From assembly GCF_003144095.1 (NCBI RefSeq), contig NZ_NSKH01000018.1:217716-281715 (forward strand): a DNA stretch of 64,000 nucleotides, in the 5' to 3' direction. Of this stretch, positions 51,454 through 58,065 are shown piece after piece; within the stretch, counting starts at the first letter, position 1; the number at the start of each line of letters is the position of its first letter. Source of the stretch: Streptomyces sp. ICBB 8177. GTDB taxonomy: Bacteria; Actinomycetota; Actinomycetes; Streptomycetales; Streptomycetaceae. Under the pieces are notes generated by a model. That model had not been told where the DNA came from and did no database searches. It saw nothing but the letters and a program-made list of their open reading frames with translations. The translations under genes and the position numbers were made by a program.

Positions 51454-52623
51454 TCACAGCGACCAGTGGGCACCCGGCTCGTCGAGCCACGCCTGCAAAC
51501 CGCCCGCGGTGACGGTGAGGCCGAACCGGTCGACGTCCGGGGAGCCCTGGGCCTGCCACCACGCGTAGGCGGTCTCAACCTCGTCCCAGAGACGGCGCCC
51601 ACCAGCCTGGTACGCCTTCGTGACCGACTGGCCGGGCTCGTACAGCGCGGCTGCCCACGACCTGTCCGTGAGGCTGTACAGCCACACGTTCCGGGCGCCG
51701 TCACGGACGGCCGTCATCAGCTCGCAACCCGGCACACGCAACCCCGCGGTGAACTCGAACGACGTGAACGGCTCGAACGCGTCCGCGGGCAACCGAGTCT
51801 CCAAGGCGTCAGCGCCTCCGGGCCAGCCGTCCGGCAGATACTCCTCATGCCCTGGCCGCGTCGCCCGCCGCCCGCGGTCCTTCATGAACTCGACCAGCCG
51901 CAAGAACCGGCCCGACGCCGCCCGACCGTCGCCGTCCACGCGGAGCTCGACCACGACGTCCCGGTGGGTGAAGTGCGTGCCCCACGGGGCCACGATCACG
52001 CCGCCGGGCCGTACCTGCCGCACCCAGGCACGTGGGAAGTCGCGGACTCCGAACGTGGCCATCAGCCGGTCGAAGGGCGCGGCTCCCGGCCGGCCCACGC
52101 ACCCGTCGCCTTCCCTCACACCGACGCGAAACCCGTTGCGGTCGAGGGCACCCCTGGCGGTCTCGGCGACCTGCGGGTCGATCTCGACGGTGACCACGTT
52201 GGCCGCGCCCGCCCGGTGAGCGAGCAGGGCGGCGTTCCAGCCGGTGCCGGTGCCTATCTCCAACACGCGCATGCCGTCAGCGAGGTCGAGGTCATCGAGC
52301 ATGCGGAACACCACGGATGGTGCGGAGCACGATGACGTCGGCACGGTGCCCGGCTGGCCGTCGGGGCGGCCGCCGTCCCACTGGGTGGTGATCGGTTCGT
52401 CGCTGTCGGCGTACTCGTACCAGGCATCTGGATCGGTCGCCTTGTCGACGCGGGTGCTGGATCCGTCGGCCATCCGGTGCGGCCACATCACGGTGGGCAG
52501 GAAGGCGGCACGGTCCACGGTCTCGAACGCTGCTTCCCAGCCGGGGGTCAGGGCGCCCTTGTCGCGGAGCAAGCGGCCCAACTCCGTCCGGGTGGCCCGC
52601 TCCTTGCGTGGCCTGATGGTCAC
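51454..52623 (-). CDS. PIMT-like SAM methyltransferase, probable RiPP-modifying enzyme
   Basis: A 389-residue methyltransferase of the protein-L-isoaspartate O-methyltransferase fold. PTSSCSAPSVVFRMLDDL is the PIMT catalytic-loop region, and VLEIGTGTGWNAALLAHRAG is SAM motif I, with VTVEIDPQVAETA as motif II. A C-terminal extension of about 160 residues is absent from housekeeping PIMT. The GTG start overlaps the stop of a 43-residue peptide gene (GTGA), which makes that peptide the likely substrate. PIMT homologues in lanthipeptide, lasso, graspetide and imiditide pathways methylate Asp to form aspartimide. Confidence 0.88.
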   Translation of the reverse strand: MTIRPRKERATRTELGRLLRDKGALTPGWEAAFETVDRAAFLPTVMWPHRMADGSSTRVDKATDPDAWYEYADSDEPITTQWDGGRPDGQPGTVPTSSCSAPSVVFRMLDDLDLADGMRVLEIGTGTGWNAALLAHRAGAANVVTVEIDPQVAETARGALDRNGFRVGVREGDGCVGRPGAAPFDRLMATFGVRDFPRAWVRQVRPGGVIVAPWGTHFTHRDVVVELRVDGDGRAASGRFLRLVEFMKDRGRRATRPGHEEYLPDGWPGGADALETRLPADAFEPFTSFEFTAGLRVPGCELMTAVRDGARNVWLYSLTDRSWAAALYEPGQSVTKAYQAGGRRLWDEVETAYAWWQAQGSPDVDRFGLTVTAGGLQAWLDEPGAHWSL

Positions 52624-52751
52624 TTGCGGTGTTTCCCGTCGCCGTCGGGGGTCGGCCCGTCGGGAGAGGGCGGCGTCGGCGGCAGCGGCCACGGCTGGCC
52701 GGGCAGCTTGTCGTCGTCGCCTCCGTACACGACCGGTTCGTTCCTCATCAT
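52620..52751 (-). CDS. 43-residue Asp/Gly/Pro-rich peptide, candidate imiditide-like RiPP precursor
   Basis: Starts MMRNEPVVYGGDDDKL behind an excellent AAGGAGAG site five bases from the first ATG. It has a DDD run at 12-14, a Pro-rich middle (20-30, single Trp at 21) and three Asp-Gly pairs at 31-32, 36-37 and 38-39, ending KHRK. No Cys or Ser/Thr cluster, so lanthionine chemistry is excluded. Asp-Gly is the preferred aspartimide site for PIMT-type enzymes, and the next gene is one, joined by a GTGA overlap. No protease or exporter gene is adjacent. Confidence 0.75.
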   Translation of the reverse strand: MMRNEPVVYGGDDDKLPGQPWPLPPTPPSPDGPTPDGDGKHRK

Positions 52752-53056
52752 GATCTCTCCTTCGGTTGGTTGCGGCGCGGGGCCGACCCCGTGACCGGGC
52801 AGGCCGGTGACCGGCGCCCGAGCCGGCAGCGGCCTTGAGGGCCTTTGGTTGGCCGGTGCCCTTGCCACCCGCTTCGGCGGATTGGGCACCGGCCGCTTTC
52901 GTCGCTCGACGTCATCGCCGAGCACCCGCAGCGGCGCCGGTCCGCACGTCCGGGACGGGCAGCCGGCGCCGTGCCCACGGCAGACTCCGCCCTCCTCAGC
53001 ACCCGACCAGCGAAAACAGCCAGCTCTGATGTGCCGCCACTGAGTGCCTCAGGTAC
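52752..53056. other. Leader/intergenic region upstream of the peptide operon
   Basis: About 300 bp. The main structure is a perfect 11-bp inverted repeat at 52851-52861 and 52884-52894, about 100-145 nt upstream of the peptide ATG, either a leader hairpin of the peptide operon or the terminator of the secreted-protein gene. Confidence 0.5.
52851..52894 (-). terminator. Perfect 11-bp hairpin upstream of the peptide-methyltransferase genes
   Basis: Arms 52851-52861 and 52884-52894 around a 22-nt loop. On the leftward transcript it follows the secreted-protein gene by about 160 nt and precedes the peptide ATG by about 100 nt, so it may end the former or fold in the leader of the latter. Confidence 0.45.
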
Positions 53057-53338
53057 TCAGAGGGCCACGAGAAGTTTCAGCACCGGGTCTTCTGCACCTC
53101 CGCAGCTCTGGTGGGGATCGCTGATCGGGAGCTGAGCGGTGTTGTTCAGGAGTCCTGAAGCGTGCACGGTTTCGGCGACAGCCTTGTTTGTGTGGTCGAC
53201 GGTGACACACGTGTTGTCGAATGCCGGGCTGCCGATGGTCCCGATACCGCCGGCGCTGGCTGGTGCCGCGGACAGCATCCCCGTCCCGGCAACCACACTA
53301 ACCAAGCCTGCGAACCGCACAATGTTATAGATGCGCAT
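53057..53338 (-). CDS. Small secreted protein
   Basis: A 93-residue protein starting MRIYNIVRFAGLVSVVAGTG with a Sec signal ending near ASA-G (residue 30). The mature part has two Cys (NTCVTVDH and HQSCGGAE) that could form a disulfide, and a GSPAFDNTC start familiar from small exported Streptomyces proteins of unknown role. An upstream TTG in frame is less likely. It is oriented with the peptide-methyltransferase pair and lies upstream of it. Confidence 0.75.
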   Translation of the reverse strand: MRIYNIVRFAGLVSVVAGTGMLSAAPASAGGIGTIGSPAFDNTCVTVDHTNKAVAETVHASGLLNNTAQLPISDPHQSCGGAEDPVLKLLVAL

Positions 53339-53592
53339 GTGTAACAAACGAGGCAACCGGCACTTCAGTCACCGAAGCCCCCGGCCTGCCATCCTCCTCC
53401 CTGACAAGATGAAACCGGGCTTGCTTCAAAGGCATGGGGGACCTGGATGAGCAGAGCAGGGGCGGGACCAGCCGGTCGCCTGCACCGCCTCGCCCCGTCC
53501 GTCCAGCAGCGCGGCACCCGCGAGGCAAGCTGCGTGTGCCGGTCCGGTGTCAGCGGGTGAGTGTCAAGTGATGTGGGGCAGAGCCGAGGTTC

Positions 53593-54189
53593 GTGTCGTC
53601 TGCGCCGGGCGGTGCGGTGCGGCTTCAGCGACGGCGGTGCCCCTGGCCGGTCCGGGTGATCGTGGACTCGCAGTCCGTCAAAGGCGCGGAGACCGTGTCG
53701 AAGGCAACGCGCGGCTACGACGCGAACAAACACATAAATGGGAGGAAGCGGCACCTCCTGGTGGACCAGGACGGCCTGCTCGTCGACCTGCTCGTCACGC
53801 CGGCCGACATCCAGGACCGCGACGCCGCCCGCATCCTGCTGACCCGCCTCCACGCCGAACACCCCGAGATCGTCCTGGTCTGGGCCGACAACGGCTACGG
53901 CGGAGACGAGTTCGCCACCTGGGCCCAGACCGCCCTAGGCATCACCATCAAGGTCGTCTCCCGGCCCAAGGACGCCAAGGGCTTCGTCTTGTTGCCCAAG
54001 CGCTGGGTGGTTGAACGGTCGAATTCGTGGACGATGCGAGCCCGCCGCAACGCCAGGGACTACGAACGCCTCATGTCCCACGCCGAAGCCCACATCCAGT
54101 GGGCCTTCATCACCCTCATGACCCGCCGCCTCACCCGACGAAACCGCCGGACCGACGCGATCCCAACTCCCTTTGCCGCAGCCGCCTGA
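53593..54189 (+). pseudogene. IS5-family transposase, 5'-truncated
   Basis: The frame gives a typical DDE catalytic half: VIVDSQSVKGAETVSKATRG with the first Asp, VWADNGYGGDEFATWAQ with the second, and WVVERSNSWTMRARR with the Glu. About 90-110 N-terminal residues of a full IS5-type transposase are missing; the sequence before about 53655 does not fit the family. Terminal inverted repeats were not identified. It is a remnant that marks past insertion into this accessory region. Confidence 0.88.
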
Positions 54190-54326
54190 CGACCCCTCCG
54201 CTGCCGTTCGCCTCGGCGTCCATCGACGCTCATCCGAACGGCAAACCCGATCACCACTCAGATTCAGGGCACCGTGACCTGCGGAAAGAGGATGTGACAC
54301 AGGCACTTACGGCCACACTGCGGCGC

Positions 54327-54737
54327 TCATGCCGTGGTGGGAGCGTGGTTGCGGCGGGCGCGCTCGGTCCACGGCACCTCAGCGCGGACCCGCTCGCCGA
54401 GCGTCGTCTCGACCCAGGCGCCCAGCAGCAGGACGCGGCGGGTCAGCAGGCCGCAGGCGTGGCCGTCGCGGGAGAGGCGGTCCCAGTCGTGGACGAGGAC
54501 GACGCGTTGGACCGCGCCCCCGGCGGCGTGGACGGTGCGCAGCATCGCGTCGAACGCCGGGCGCCGGTCGTCGCTGAGGGCGTCGTCGCCGACATCGAGC
54601 CAACGCCCGCCCCCATCCCAGCCCTTCACCCCCATGTACGCGGTGCAGGCATCCATGCGGGCCCGCAGCATGCCCGTCGCGATCGTCGCGTGACGGTCGT
54701 AGACGAACGCCAGTGTGGGCTGCTGGACATTCAGCAT
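54327..54737 (-). CDS. Serine-recombinase-like N-terminal-domain protein lacking the catalytic Ser
   Basis: A 136-residue protein that follows the resolvase-fold layout: FVYDRHATIATGMLRARMDA, CTAYMGVKGWDGGGRWLDVG, then RRPAFDAMLRTV and VVLVHDWDRLSRDGHACG. The active-site Ser of the usual R-V-S motif is replaced (R-H-A), and there is no DNA-binding C-terminus. It is therefore unlikely to recombine DNA and may be a domesticated regulator or a decaying fragment. Its ATG overlaps the end of the preceding small gene by 7 bp. Confidence 0.68.
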   Translation of the reverse strand: MLNVQQPTLAFVYDRHATIATGMLRARMDACTAYMGVKGWDGGGRWLDVGDDALSDDRRPAFDAMLRTVHAAGGAVQRVVLVHDWDRLSRDGHACGLLTRRVLLLGAWVETTLGERVRAEVPWTERARRNHAPTTA

Positions 54738-54961
54738 GTGGCGCCCCCCAGAAGGCTTCCACGCGGTGCAGCGGCCAGTCGCATGGCTACGCCCGCGCGG
54801 GCGCGTCCCGACTCCACCAGGGCGAGGTCGGGCGAGGCGCTGTCAGCCTTCAGCGAGGGCGGCACGATCCCCGCATCATCGAGAGCCGCCCTCAATGTCT
54901 CTACCGCGACGTAGGGGTCGATGGCCGGTACCCGGGAGCTGTCTGTGTTCCTGGTGCCCAT
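54731..54961 (-). CDS. Small hypothetical protein coupled to the recombinase-like gene
   Basis: A 76-residue protein starting MGTRNTDSSRVPAIDPYVAV. Helical from about 15 to 35 (AVETLRAALDDAGIV) with an Ala/Arg-rich second half. No recognised family. It overlaps the recombinase-like start by 7 bp, suggesting one transcript. The reading frame is open further upstream but loses coding composition there. Confidence 0.55.
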   Translation of the reverse strand: MGTRNTDSSRVPAIDPYVAVETLRAALDDAGIVPPSLKADSASPDLALVESGRARAGVAMRLAAAPRGSLLGGATC

Positions 54962-54979
54962 GACCTGGACGCTAGGGGC

Positions 54980-55010
54980 GAGGAACTGTAGGCCGCCACG
55001 ACAGTTCCTC
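54980..55010. promoter_or_regulatory. Perfect inverted repeat in the divergent region
   Basis: GAGGAACTGT-N11-ACAGTTCCTC, arms 54980-54989 and 55001-55010. It lies 19 bp upstream of the leftward small gene and about 125 bp before the rightward DUF6879 gene. CGAAGTTGC is then repeated at 55010-55018 and 55031-55039, 21 bp apart, two helical turns. Operator of one of the local XRE regulators is the simplest reading. Confidence 0.55.
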
Positions 55011-55133
55011 GAAGTTGCTTGAGTACTGCGCGAAGTTGCGGGATGTTCCTCAAGGAGGTCTGCGAAGCTCTCTCCACGGAGCCTCGGCCCGGCGGAGACT
55101 TGGCAGATCAGTCCCCTATGGAAGGAACTGGTC

Positions 55134-55889
55134 ATGCCACGACGACTGCGCTTCAACGGTACTGGCAGCGGCGATACCGGATGCCCCGCGGTACACGAAG
55201 ACCTCGACACGCATGAAGTGATCGTGCATGGTCCGCCGCTCACCGACCCCGACGACCTCGCGCGGCTTCAGCACCTGGGCCCTGGTGAGGTACCGATCGT
55301 GGTGCCGCGGGAACTTCTCGTTGACTGGGGGCCGAAGGACCTGACGCGCAAAGCAAAGGTCGTTGACCTGGACACGTTCAACAGCCTCTTCGAGACGTTC
55401 AATCATTCGGCATGGCGACTGGAAACGCGGCGCCGCTACGCCTCCGATGAGGCCACGGACACCTACGCCCAGTTCGTCGAATCGGGTGTCGTTGCGTGGG
55501 ACACGGGCTCCTGGTACTGCCGCACGATCCGCACCCAGGTCGCGGCCGGCAAGTCCGTCGGCCGCGTGCGCATCGTCGACAACCCCCCGACAGTCGGTCA
55601 GCTTTACCTCATGGCCAACGCACAGCGCAACGCCGAACTCGGCGAGGACGTACGGAACCTGTGGCGCGAGGACGCGGAGCAGCTACCGCTCGGGGCCGAA
55701 GACTTCTGGATCTTTGACTCCCGTCTCGTCGCGCTGCTGAACTTCGACGACACCGACAGCCTGATCGACGTCGAACTCATCACGGAGCCGGCCGAAGTCG
55801 TCCGGTACTCCGTCCTGCGCGACGCCGCACTGCATCACGCCATCCCGCACACGCGCTTCGCGGCCCTGCTGCCCGTGAAGAAGGAGTAA
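55134..55889 (+). CDS. DUF6879-family protein with an N-terminal extension
   Basis: A 251-residue protein behind GGAAGGAACT. Residues 1-70 (RRLRFNGTGSGDTGCPAVHE, LLVDWGPKDL) resemble a small conserved Streptomyces protein usually seen next to XRE/DUF397 genes. Residues 78-251 are DUF6879: DLDTFNSLFETFNHSAWRLE, PPTVGQLYLMANAQRNAELG and EDFWIFDSRLVALLNF. Here the two are joined in one frame, either a natural fusion or two genes with a lost stop. It precedes the XRE gene by 15 bp. Function unknown; these partners are thought to modulate the XRE regulator. Confidence 0.85.
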   Translation: MPRRLRFNGTGSGDTGCPAVHEDLDTHEVIVHGPPLTDPDDLARLQHLGPGEVPIVVPRELLVDWGPKDLTRKAKVVDLDTFNSLFETFNHSAWRLETRRRYASDEATDTYAQFVESGVVAWDTGSWYCRTIRTQVAAGKSVGRVRIVDNPPTVGQLYLMANAQRNAELGEDVRNLWREDAEQLPLGAEDFWIFDSRLVALLNFDDTDSLIDVELITEPAEVVRYSVLRDAALHHAIPHTRFAALLPVKKE

Positions 55890-55904
55890 GCAGGTGAAGT
55901 ACCG

Positions 55905-56765
55905 GTGAGCACGGACTACCGGAAGGCACGCCAAGACCTCGGCGCTCGACTCCGAGAGCTGCGGCTGTGGGCACCTGGTGGACGGCTCACCGGTACGCAG
56001 CTCGCCCACCAGTGCGGCTGGCACAAGTCCAAGGTCAGCAAGTTGGAGAACGGCCTGCAGACGGCGACGCCCGAAGACCTGAAGCTATGGGCGGAAGCCA
56101 CCGGGCAGCCAGAGGCGTATGACGAACTACTCACCAGATTGCGGGGGTTCGAGTCTCATGTGCGATCGTGGCGGCGCCAACTCGCAGCCGGCCACGAGCC
56201 GGTACAGCGGACCATTGCTGCCGAGTACGCCCGTTCTGCTGTGATCCACGGATTCGAGAGCGCCACGATCCCCGGCATCCTGCAGAACCCGGACTACGCC
56301 AGGTCGATCTTCCGGCGTTATGCCGAACTTCAACGCTCCAAGCAGGACACCGAAGAGGCCGTGCGCGCCCGCATGCAGCGACAGGACATGCTCTACACGT
56401 CGCACAAGCGGTTCCGCATCATTGTCGGTTACGCCGCCCTGCGCGCGCTCATCTGCACACCCGCTGTGCTGGCCGCCCAGCTGAACCGACTTGACGGGTT
56501 CATCGGGGCGGACACTGTGCAGTTGGGCATTATTCCGCCGGACGCCTCACTCAAACTACCCCCGACCGGTGGGTTTTGGATTCATGACGAGCGCCTGGTC
56601 ACCGTCGAGACGTGGCACGCCGAGCTGTGGATCGATGACGCGGACAGCATCGCTACTTACCTGCGCGTCTGGAAGACCCTGCAAGAGTCCGCTGTCTACG
56701 GGAACGATGCTCACAACGTGATCAACGCGGCGCGGCGCGCGCTGAACCTGCCGGAGAGGTCCTGA
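55905..56765 (+). CDS. XRE-family regulator with DUF5753 domain
   Basis: A 286-residue regulator. The Cro/C1-type HTH is at about 12-65 (LGARLRELRLWAPGGRLTGT, QLAHQCGWHKSKVSKLENGL). The remaining 200 residues are DUF5753, with IPGILQNPDYARSIFRRYAE and ARMQRQDMLY as markers. The GTG start follows the DUF6879 stop by 15 bp. XRE-DUF5753 proteins occur in dozens of copies per Streptomyces genome, usually with a DUF397 or DUF6879 partner, and influence development and antibiotic production. Confidence 0.93.
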   Translation: MSTDYRKARQDLGARLRELRLWAPGGRLTGTQLAHQCGWHKSKVSKLENGLQTATPEDLKLWAEATGQPEAYDELLTRLRGFESHVRSWRRQLAAGHEPVQRTIAAEYARSAVIHGFESATIPGILQNPDYARSIFRRYAELQRSKQDTEEAVRARMQRQDMLYTSHKRFRIIVGYAALRALICTPAVLAAQLNRLDGFIGADTVQLGIIPPDASLKLPPTGGFWIHDERLVTVETWHAELWIDDADSIATYLRVWKTLQESAVYGNDAHNVINAARRALNLPERS

Positions 56766-57038
56766 CGCGGCGCACCGGAACGCCAGGAGGCCCAAGCGGC
56801 ACGCCCCGCTGGGCAGAGGCTTTCGCGAGCACGAGCGGGCGAGCCGGGCGGCCCAGCGGGGGACGGCGAGCCGCGTGAAGACCTCGCGGGCGTCGGCACA
56901 GTTCCCCGGTCTCGCGTGGGATCACCGTGCGCGGCGGTCGAGCGGGCGAACGGGTGCAGGCCCGCCCGTGCGGCGCGGGAACTTTGAAACGGCCCCGCCC
57001 GGCGTGCCGGACGGGGCCGCAGTACGGCTCAGCAGACG

Positions 57039-57251
57039 CTAGGCGGCACCTATCTCCCCGCGCTTCACCGCGTCCGTGAACGACGCCCACGCGGCCGGAG
57101 AGAAGGCCAGGGCGGGACCGTGCGGATCCTTGCTGTCACGGACCGGCACGACACCGGACAGGCCCGTCCCCATCTCGACGCAGTTACCGCCATTCGGGCC
57201 GCTGTAACTGCTCTTGCGCCACGTCACGGGCAAATCACTTGCTCTGCTCAT
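57039..57251 (-). CDS. DUF397-domain protein
   Basis: A 70-residue protein: LPVTWRKSSYSGPNGGNCVE is the DUF397 signature, followed by VPVRDSKDPHGPALAFSPAA and WASFTDAVKRGE. Partners of XRE-DUF5753 regulators such as this one (BldB and AbaA-OrfA are known relatives) are thought to act as their antagonists. The ATG lies 17 bp inside the 3' end of the XRE gene, so the two are coupled. Confidence 0.95.
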   Translation of the reverse strand: MSRASDLPVTWRKSSYSGPNGGNCVEMGTGLSGVVPVRDSKDPHGPALAFSPAAWASFTDAVKRGEIGAA

Positions 57252-58065
57252 GGCTGAGTCCTTCCAGGTGCTCGCGGATCAGGTCGGCAGACGCCTCAGG
57301 CGATTTGGCGACGGCCCTCAACAGATCATAGGTTCGAGCGCCTTCGACGACTTCCTGAGCGTCCAGCGCCGCCCGGCCCTGGGAGAAGCCGTCCACCCAC
57401 AGGACGTCCGCCCCCTCCGCGAAGCTCATCATGCTGAACGGCCCGTTCAGTCCCGGATGGGCGGCGCACTTCCTCTCGATCAACTGAATGACCGTGCGGG
57501 GGTGCTGCCCCGCCTCCAGAAGCTTCTCTAGTTGCGCCCGCATGACGGCCGGGCCCCCGATGTGGCGTTCCAGGACGTATTCATCGATCACGAACCACGT
57601 GCGCGGCCGGTCCTCACGCGTGAGGATGTCCTGCCTGGTCATCCGGGCCGCGACGAGGTCGTCAAGGTTGTCCGGTCGTACGACGCTGAGCACCGCTCGC
57701 GCGTACCCCTCGGTCTGGAGAAGGCCCGGAATGACCTGCCCCTCAAAGGACCGGATGGACGTGGCTGCCCGCTCAAGCTCCACGTACGGCAGGAACCAGC
57801 CAGGGTAGGCGTAACGGATCACCAGTGGGAGCAGCCTCCCGAAGTGGCCGTCCGTGTCGAACGCGAGGTCCAGGTCCCTGGCCAGGTCGGCCGACGGGAC
57901 GCGTTCCCCGGACTCGATGTAGCTGATCATCGCCTGCGTGGTGTGCGCCGCCTTGGCCGTCTTCGACTGCGACCAGCCCGCCTTGTTGCGGACGCGCTGT
58001 AACTCGGTGCCGAAGAACGCCAGCAGCGATGGCGCCGCTTCCGTAGCTTTGGCCTCAACTGTCAT
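57235..58065 (-). CDS. XRE-family regulator with DUF5753 domain (second)
   Basis: A 276-residue regulator. HTH at about 17-70 (LQRVRNKAGWSQSKTAKAAH, TTQAMISYIESGERVPSADL), then DUF5753 with IPGLLQTEGYARAVLSVVRP and ARMTRQDILTRED. The 3' end overlaps the DUF397 gene by 17 bp. It diverges from a chain of small rightward genes, with a symmetric element (58082-58102) just upstream of its ATG. Confidence 0.94.
   Translation of the reverse strand: MTVEAKATEAAPSLLAFFGTELQRVRNKAGWSQSKTAKAAHTTQAMISYIESGERVPSADLARDLDLAFDTDGHFGRLLPLVIRYAYPGWFLPYVELERAATSIRSFEGQVIPGLLQTEGYARAVLSVVRPDNLDDLVAARMTRQDILTREDRPRTWFVIDEYVLERHIGGPAVMRAQLEKLLEAGQHPRTVIQLIERKCAAHPGLNGPFSMMSFAEGADVLWVDGFSQGRAALDAQEVVEGARTYDLLRAVAKSPEASADLIREHLEGLSHEQSK

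What the first reader, a model, noticed from the sequence alone, without database searches (positions are those of the whole stretch)
51454..52751. Two-gene imiditide-like RiPP candidate: Asp-Gly-rich peptide fused by GTGA coupling to a PIMT-like methyltransferase
The 43-residue peptide has a strong ribosome site, a DDD run and three Asp-Gly pairs near the C-terminus. Its stop overlaps the GTG of a PIMT-fold methyltransferase carrying an extra C-terminal domain. PIMT homologues in RiPP pathways methylate Asp so that Asp-Gly closes to aspartimide; imiditides are the class that needs only a precursor and such an enzyme. No ATP-grasp, lanthipeptide or lasso enzyme is nearby, so methyl transfer would be the class-defining step. 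Several Asp-Gly pairs would allow more than one aspartimide per peptide.
Basis: partly seen in the sequence, partly recalled or inferred. Interest (0 to 1): 0.82.

Follow-up and report, generated by a model that had tools for sequence, protein, structure and literature searches.

The report
Two-gene aspartimide peptide locus (imiditide)
A Streptomyces-family bacterium carries a short peptide gene overlapping the gene of an enzyme that very probably bends one aspartate of that peptide into a ring; this is a new example of a peptide class described in 2023, and related pairs often sit beside the same regulatory genes, which may hint at what these peptides do.

Summary
A 42-43-residue Gly/Pro/Asp-rich peptide (52620-52751, minus strand) with a good ribosome site overlaps, by GTGA, a 389-residue PIMT-type methyltransferase with a C-terminal extension and the WxxxGxP motif. 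Of 87 fetched enzyme places at least 45% identical, 85 have a candidate precursor beside them. One point is corrected: only D31 (P-D31-G) is near-universal (84 of 85 distinct precursors); D36 is Asp in 6 and D38 in 55, so one aspartimide is likelier than several. Of 36 strong enzyme matches in 20 genomes, 0 have the graspetide ATP-grasp enzyme within 5 kb, against 26 of 85 weaker ones. Unasked for: XRE-DUF5753 (WhiJ-type) regulators lie within 5 kb of 52 of 85 enzyme places (about 2.7 expected), with DUF6879 at 26 and DUF397 at 29; the window has all three. A transposase-bearing segment of about 1.5 kb lies about 85 bp upstream of the peptide. The chemistry is untested here.

The parts
52620..52751 (-). 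Precursor peptide gene (43 codons from the first ATG; 42 from the second ATG at 52748, the start conserved in S. parmotrematis)
52656..52661 (-). Codons of Asp31-Gly32 in the P-D-G motif: near-universal Asp and proposed methylation/aspartimide site
   Evidence: column of D31 is D in 84 of 85 distinct precursors
52755..52763 (-). Ribosome-binding site GAAGGAGAG upstream of the peptide (CGAAGGAGA in S. parmotrematis)
51454..52623 (-). PIMT/PAMT-type O-methyltransferase, 389 aa, GTG start overlapping the peptide stop; PCMT domain residues 97-225, C-terminal extension, WQAQGSP (WxxxGxP)
55134..55889 (+). DUF6879 protein (open frame; domain at residues 80-243, so the true start is probably internal), divergent from the peptide
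   Evidence: PF21806; linkage
55905..56765 (+). XRE-DUF5753 regulator downstream of DUF6879
   Evidence: PF19054, PF13560; linkage
57235..58065 (-). Second XRE-DUF5753 regulator
   Evidence: NF058600 below cut-off
57039..57251 (-). DUF397 small protein (domain of the BldB paralogs); contains KSSYSG
   Evidence: PF04149; sequence; motif of BldB paralogs
52836..54305 (.). Segment absent from S. parmotrematis, carrying a DDE transposase frame (53593-54189 +), starting about 85 bp upstream of the peptide start; not part of the ancestral locus

Best explanation
This is an imiditide (type I pamtide) biosynthetic pair. The ribosome makes a linear 42-43-residue precursor; the overlapping gene makes a SAM-dependent PAMT that binds it, probably through charge contacts with the acidic N-terminal half and the basic KHRK tail, and methylates the side chain of one residue, Asp31. 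The methyl ester closes on the amide of Gly32 to give an aspartimide (-18 Da), which can hydrolyse to isoaspartate/aspartate. Shown here: gene structure, homology, conserved Asp31, no primary RiPP enzyme among the scanned neighbours, linkage of the family to XRE-DUF5753 regulators. Inferred from characterised relatives (SpaM/SpaA, NmaM/NmaA): methyl transfer, ring closure, charge-based recognition. Inferred from gene order: that an adjacent XRE-DUF5753/DUF397 regulator controls the pair. The biological role of the product is unknown for the whole class.
For: Enzyme: PF01135 at residues 97-225 and TIGR04188 (ATP-grasp peptide maturase system methyltransferase) over residues 19-375, 294 bits, below its curated cut-off of 380; the best PDB sequence matches are protein-L-isoaspartate O-methyltransferases incl. 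1dl5, matched within residues 91-233 only. WxxxGxP, the motif PMC13001092 gives for RiPP-associated PIMTs, is present as WQAQGSP, and in 78 of 86 enzymes of the tree set, the window's included. Peptide: 43 aa, 14% Gly, 26% Pro, 14% Asp; the 85 precursor rows beside enzymes of at least 45% identity average 44.6 aa, 21.9% Gly, 21.6% Pro, 10.5% Asp; published type I: about 45 aa, 17.3%, 16.8%, 10.2%. Pairing: 85 of 87 places; candidates were picked by length, ribosome site and residue content (Gly+Pro high, Ala+Arg+Val low), not by Asp. D31: D in 84 of 85 distinct precursors; PDG in 80 of 85 rows. ATP-grasp TIGR04187 within 5 kb: 0 of 36 strong enzyme matches (the window's included), 26 of 85 weaker ones.
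Against: No mass or activity data for this pair. The peptide matches no family in NCBIfam or Pfam. The precursor sequences SpaA and NmaA were not available to me, so I could not align D31 with the residue proved to be modified. The structure prediction failed (mean pLDDT 34.7 on a three-row alignment), so the fold, the C-terminal domain above all, rests on sequence profiles. The insertion close upstream may have altered or silenced expression in this strain. The own genome holds a related precursor beside a truncated enzyme, so such loci do decay.
Confidence: 0.9

Rival explanations
1. The enzyme modifies two or three Asp-Gly sites (D31, D36, D38), giving a multiply aspartimidylated peptide.
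For: All three Asp-Gly pairs are present here; D38 is Asp in 55 of 85 distinct precursors, and 50 of 85 rows have three or more DG pairs.
Against: D36 is Asp in 6 of 85; none of 14 GVPNPPK-tail precursors has an Asp after P-D-G-G. The review says RiPP PIMTs act on one specific Asp (PMC13001092).
Confidence: 0.08
2. It is a decayed graspetide locus whose ATP-grasp enzyme was lost.
For: The best curated profile is the graspetide-associated methyltransferase TIGR04188, and a decayed graspetide-like remnant exists elsewhere in this genome (C20).
Against: Score below that family's cut-off, and the precursor matches no NCBIfam model; 0 of 36 strong enzyme matches have TIGR04187 within 5 kb, while 85 of 87 close enzyme places keep a precursor.
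Confidence: 0.03
3. The small frame is a regulatory leader or chance frame, and the methyltransferase acts on some other protein.
For: The peptide matches no curated family; 2 of 87 enzyme places have no candidate peptide.
Against: 85 of 87 places have a candidate peptide, nearly all with the same residue pattern, conserved at protein level while N-terminal halves vary; coding-type codon bias and mostly synonymous change.
Confidence: 0.03

Closest known systems
Imiditides / type I pamtides: SpaA-SpaM (Streptomyces sparsogenes), NmaA-NmaM (Nonomuraea maritima)
   Same: Two genes only; roughly 45-aa Gly/Pro/Asp-rich precursor with acidic N-terminal and basic C-terminal part; PAMT with C-terminal extension and WxxxGxP; a conserved Asp near Pro/Gly (PMC10787088, PMC13001092).
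   Different: Sequence identity to SpaA/NmaA not measured (sequences not available). The proposed Asp here is followed by Gly, the modified Asp of NmaA by His. Product not observed.
Group 13 graspetides (graspimiditides: fuscimiditide, amycolimiditide, SsfA)
   Same: Homologous PAMT (TIGR04188).
   Different: They need an ATP-grasp enzyme and a cyclised substrate; none was found here or near the 36 strong enzyme matches.
Type II pamtides / cysimiditides (FcaA-FcaM)
   Same: Two-gene PAMT pair.
   Different: Their precursors have four cysteines; this peptide has none.
WhiJ-BldB-AbaA/IosA developmental modules of Streptomyces (WhiJ9-BldB9-iosA)
   Same: XRE regulator and DUF397 protein (the domain of BldB paralogs) next to a variable small cargo gene (PMC10294661).
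   Different: Here the possible cargo is a peptide plus PAMT, and DUF6879 is a further frequent member; no regulation has been shown. That the window's XRE-DUF5753 proteins are WhiJ paralogs was not tested against WhiJ itself; the label is mine.

Membership tests
Imiditide / type I pamtide | Precursor gene directly beside a PAMT gene in a two-gene arrangement | tested here: met
   GTGA overlap; same pairing at 85 of 87 related places
Imiditide / type I pamtide | Precursor about 45 aa, rich in Gly, Pro, Asp, without the four-cysteine zinc motif | tested here: met
   43 aa, 14% Gly, 25.6% Pro, 14% Asp, no Cys; published figures
Imiditide / type I pamtide | PIMT-type enzyme with a C-terminal extension of over 100 aa | tested here: met
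   PCMT domain match ends at residue 225 of 389; TIGR04188 profile covers to residue 375. By sequence only; no usable structure model
Imiditide / type I pamtide | WxxxGxP motif near the C-terminus | tested here: met
   WQAQGSP; motif
[quoted passage not shown]
   D31 in P-D-G, D in 84 of 85 distinct precursors
Imiditide / type I pamtide | No primary modification enzyme of another RiPP class nearby | tested here: met
   Nearest near-full TIGR04187 match on the same contig about 362 kb away; Pfam scans of 23 other window frames between 36 and 64 kb show no RiPP enzyme; not every frame was scanned, and lanthipeptide or lasso families were not searched one by one
Imiditide / type I pamtide | Methylation then aspartimide/isoAsp formation on the linear peptide | not testable with these tools
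   needs mass spectrometry
Group 13 graspetide | ATP-grasp macrocyclase in the cluster | tested here: not met
WhiJ/BldB-type locus | XRE regulator and DUF397 genes next to the cargo | tested here: met
   window 55905-58065, though 3.3-4.6 kb from the enzyme here
WhiJ/BldB-type locus | XRE protein is a WhiJ paralog by sequence | not tested
   no WhiJ sequence was compared
WhiJ/BldB-type locus | The regulator binds and controls the cargo promoter | not testable with these tools
   needs binding and expression tests

The most novel reading that the evidence does not exclude
Two-gene imiditides are a recurrent output of WhiJ/BldB-type regulatory modules: an XRE-DUF5753 protein, with DUF397 or DUF6879 partners, switches on the peptide-PAMT pair, and the aspartimide peptide acts in development or antibiotic control, perhaps inside the cell as a short-lived reactive signal read by the DUF5753 or DUF6879 protein. 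Besides the enzyme and these regulators no neighbour family recurs in more than 13 of 83 regions, so no common exporter or protease showed up; that fits an internal role but does not show it.
Probability: 0.2. Interest if true: 0.75.

Novelty: new member of a known kind. Interest (0 to 1): 0.4.

Why it matters
The role of aspartimide peptides is an open question: the 2026 review calls connecting them to biological function the bigger challenge (PMC13001092). The pair itself adds one more member. The linkage to XRE-DUF5753 regulators, seen at 52 of 85 related places and at scattered positions of the enzyme tree, gives a concrete place to look for function: Streptomyces development and antibiotic control, where regulators of this kind have known phenotypes. 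The alignment of 85 precursors also names the single Asp to mutate first.

Tried and rejected
Structure prediction of the enzyme on an alignment of three rows (window, L012, L013) gave mean pLDDT 34.7 and was not used; no fold search was made. A k-mer look for a shared promoter motif upstream of the precursors gave ribosome-site words and a few others that I did not follow. Direct and inverted repeats in 52752-55200 gave no convincing regulator site. A loose pattern of mine for SAM motif I matched 48 of 86 enzymes; I take the pattern to be too strict and drew nothing from it. DUF6879 was suspected to be AbaA; PMC10294661 says AbaA has an HATPase_c domain, so this was dropped. An attempt to ask whether enzyme-linked XRE proteins form their own subfamily was inconclusive: of 86 XRE matches in 25 genomes 31 lie within 5 kb of a listed enzyme, 6 of the best 10 (the query itself included), but most of those genomes were chosen because they hold such a link.

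Results against the regulator link: 33 of 85 enzyme places have none of XRE-DUF5753, DUF6879 or DUF397 within 5 kb, among them both other pairs in this genome (L008); 2 of 20 control regions held an XRE-DUF5753 match and 1 of 20 a DUF6879 match. In the window the nearest XRE is 3.3 kb from the enzyme, partly because of the insertion.

Limits of the census: the 80 regions from other genomes were taken mostly best first from the listing, with some skipped, and are only part of it, so they lean to close relatives; only four candidates per genome were scored. Of 96 enzyme places, nine under 45% identity were dropped before the 87 were counted (seven of the nine had no candidate peptide; the other two are pieces of one L051 enzyme). 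The 85 distinct precursors include that L051 peptide; the 85 rows do not; two rows share one peptide. The 85 places are the 87 without L012 and L013. L074's pick is probably a wrong frame and L116's second pick is doubtful. In the tree L012 and L013 carry the label 'none' only because their context was not computed; L012 does have DUF6879, XRE and DUF397. The control regions are at round-number positions that I chose in ten of the same genomes. The expected figures assume uniform placement of genes and independent loci; the profiles were built from the clusters, while the 2.85 per Mb rate is from Pfam PF19054. Some of the 121 enzyme matches are pieces of one gene.

Full report
WHAT IS THERE. 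On the minus strand, 52751-52620 encodes MMRNEPVVYGGDDDKLPGQPWPLPPTPPSPDGPTPDGDGKHRK, preceded by GAAGGAGAGATC. Its TGA overlaps the GTG of a 389-residue enzyme ending at 51454. In Streptantibioticus parmotrematis (L012) the enzyme is 92% identical and the first of the two ATGs reads ACG, so the second ATG (window 52748) is the likelier start. Between the two species the peptide has 4 synonymous and 2 non-synonymous codon changes (dN 0.022, dS 0.138), the enzyme dN 0.042, dS 0.117. Codon-position GC of peptide and enzyme genes is nearly the same.

THE ENZYME. Pfam PCMT matches residues 97-225; NCBIfam TIGR04188, the methyltransferase of ATP-grasp peptide systems, matches residues 19-375 with 294 bits against a curated cut-off of 380. 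The best PDB sequence matches are protein-L-isoaspartate O-methyltransferases, over residues within 91-233 only, so the C-terminal part rests on the TIGR04188 profile. It carries WQAQGSP, an exact WxxxGxP, the motif given for RiPP-associated PIMTs in PMC13001092; 78 of 86 enzymes of the tree set carry it exactly.

THE PEPTIDE IN OTHER GENOMES. Of 394 sampled genomes of the family, 130 have a match to the enzyme at E up to 1e-70 (four candidates scored per genome). I fetched 80 regions from these and added the window and L008-L013: 96 enzyme places in 87 regions, of which 87 are at least 45% identical to the window's enzyme. Beside 85 of these 87 a candidate precursor was found by length, ribosome site and residue content, without using Asp. 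In 85 distinct precursors the column of D31 holds Asp in 84, that of G32 Gly in 80, that of W21 Trp in 64, that of D38 Asp in 55, that of D36 Asp in 6. Two tail types stand out: GDGxHRK-like (62 of 86 rows of the tree set) and GVPNPPK (14), the latter one supported group of the enzyme tree (100/99) and without any Asp after P-D-G-G. The near-universal residue is therefore D31. This argues for one aspartimide, not three.

HOW IT MOST LIKELY WORKS. By comparison with SpaA-SpaM and NmaA-NmaM (PMC10787088, parts 1-4 of 5 read; PMC13001092, parts 1 and 3 of 5 read), the enzyme methylates the conserved Asp of the linear peptide, the ester closes to an aspartimide and may hydrolyse to isoAsp/Asp. In those cases the charged ends matter, and replacing the last five residues of SpaA abolished modification; here the median net charge of 85 precursor rows is -2 in the N-terminal half and +2 in the last eight residues, His counted there. 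These chemical steps are inferred; none was tested here.

NOT A GRASPETIDE. In 20 genomes, 0 of 36 strong matches to the enzyme (E up to 2.2e-82, the window's own included) have the ATP-grasp enzyme TIGR04187 within 5 kb, against 26 of 85 weaker matches. In this genome the nearest near-full TIGR04187 match (342 bits, cut-off 350) is on the same contig at 632,678, about 362 kb from the enzyme. Past the enzyme's 3' end lie an aminotransferase class IV gene and cobalamin-pathway-type genes (NIR_SIR_ferr, TP_methylase, CbiD).

A LINK TO XRE-DUF5753 REGULATORS. Clustering of neighbouring frames showed that after the enzyme itself the most frequent neighbours are XRE-DUF5753 (39 of 83 regions), DUF6879 (25) and DUF397 (22), against 0, 1 and 0 of 20 control regions. 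With profiles built from those clusters, within 5 kb of 85 enzyme places there is XRE-DUF5753 at 52 (upstream at 47), DUF6879 at 26 (all upstream), DUF397 at 29, and a 100-aa family without a name at 18; in 20 control regions of 14 kb from ten of the same genomes the numbers are 2, 1, 0 and 0. Genome-wide, PF19054 occurs 487 times in 20 genomes of 170.7 Mb, 2.85 per Mb, which gives about 2.7 of 85 by chance (my arithmetic, 11 kb per place). For DUF6879, 10 of 36 strong enzyme matches have one within 5 kb against 0.27 expected, and 16 of all 121 against 0.99. The order DUF6879 and XRE-DUF5753 upstream on the same strand as precursor and PAMT occurs at 23 of 85 places; an upstream divergent XRE-DUF5753 with DUF397 at 16 of 85, 11 of them among the 14 with the GVPNPPK tail. 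On the enzyme tree the combined label 'GDGxHRK tail with DUF6879+XRE' (23 rows) needs 14 changes, at least 11 forced by well supported branches; shuffled labels need 20.5 on average, so it is partly clustered but not one clade; changes may be losses as well as gains. In the window, DUF6879 and XRE-DUF5753 run away from the peptide at 55134-56765, and XRE-DUF5753/DUF397 lie at 57039-58065; the DUF397 protein contains KSSYSG, one of the motifs that PMC10294661 gives for the BldB paralogs. 33 of 85 places show none of the three families. That these XRE proteins are WhiJ paralogs was not tested by sequence.

WHAT IS IN PRINT. The class: PMC10787088 (2023) and the JACS 2023 imiditide paper it cites (not read). 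Searches for 'imiditide' and 'pamtide' found 5 and 2 papers. 'Regulator', 'XRE' and 'DUF' do not occur in the main texts of PMC10787088 and PMC13001092. PMC13097080 (2026; passages) notes that group 11 and 13 graspetides may co-occur with DUF397 and DUF5753 genes, and suggests mining such pairs; so the regulator link is reported for the PIMT-bearing graspetides, and what I add is its extent for two-gene imiditides, and DUF6879, a name found in 0 papers of the library. A search for papers holding at least four of 'isoaspartyl', 'methyltransferase', 'WhiJ', 'XRE', 'DUF397' found two: PMC13097080 and PMC4239341, the latter seen only in the listing. WhiJ9 is required for activation of its neighbour iosA, and loss of BldB raises iosA about 750-fold at 14 h (PMC10294661; abstract, introduction and passages); XRE-DUF397 pairs of S. 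coelicolor affect antibiotic production and differentiation (PMC10364602, abstract).

AN INSERTION. Compared with S. parmotrematis, window 52836-54305 is extra: the two flanks match at about 90% and meet in L012 with a two-base overlap. It holds a DDE transposase frame, and part of it has an 85% identical copy elsewhere in the genome. It begins about 85 bp upstream of the peptide, so expression of this copy is uncertain.

VERDICT. A new member of a known kind, securely filed by architecture and homology, with the chemistry to be shown. The regulator link is the part worth following.

Noticed in passing
window 52836-54305: About 1.47 kb segment with a DDE_Tnp_1 transposase frame, absent from S. 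parmotrematis, inserted about 85 bp upstream of the peptide start; part of it has an 85% identical copy at G000:C12.
   Followed up: partly
L008:5386-6492 and L008:9513-9887 (G000:C18): Two more precursor-PAMT pairs in the same genome, about 4.1 kb start to start; the second has an intact precursor but its enzyme frame stops resembling its relatives after about 115-125 residues, i.e. a truncated enzyme.
   Followed up: partly
L011 (G000:C20:191500-199500): PAMT-like match split over two frames beside a short TIGR04187 remnant with a stop: looks like a decayed graspetide locus.
   Followed up: no
within 5 kb of PAMT at 18 of 85 places, e.g. L117:3054-3356: A 100-aa protein family often next to DUF6879 and XRE-DUF5753; the one member scanned has no Pfam or NCBIfam match over cut-off.
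   Followed up: partly
L051:8562-9646: A second, remoter PAMT (39-43% identical) with a different precursor-like peptide (MGDHSKPPAPQPDPPQPDPKQKQDGALSGIGDPGPGRRKKDKP) in the same region as a GKHKK-tail pair.
   Followed up: no
L090, L096, L101, L116, L119: Precursor subtype lacking the LPGQPW part and reading GGHGG(N/S)PAPI(Q/T)P, a Pro run, then PSPD.
   Followed up: no
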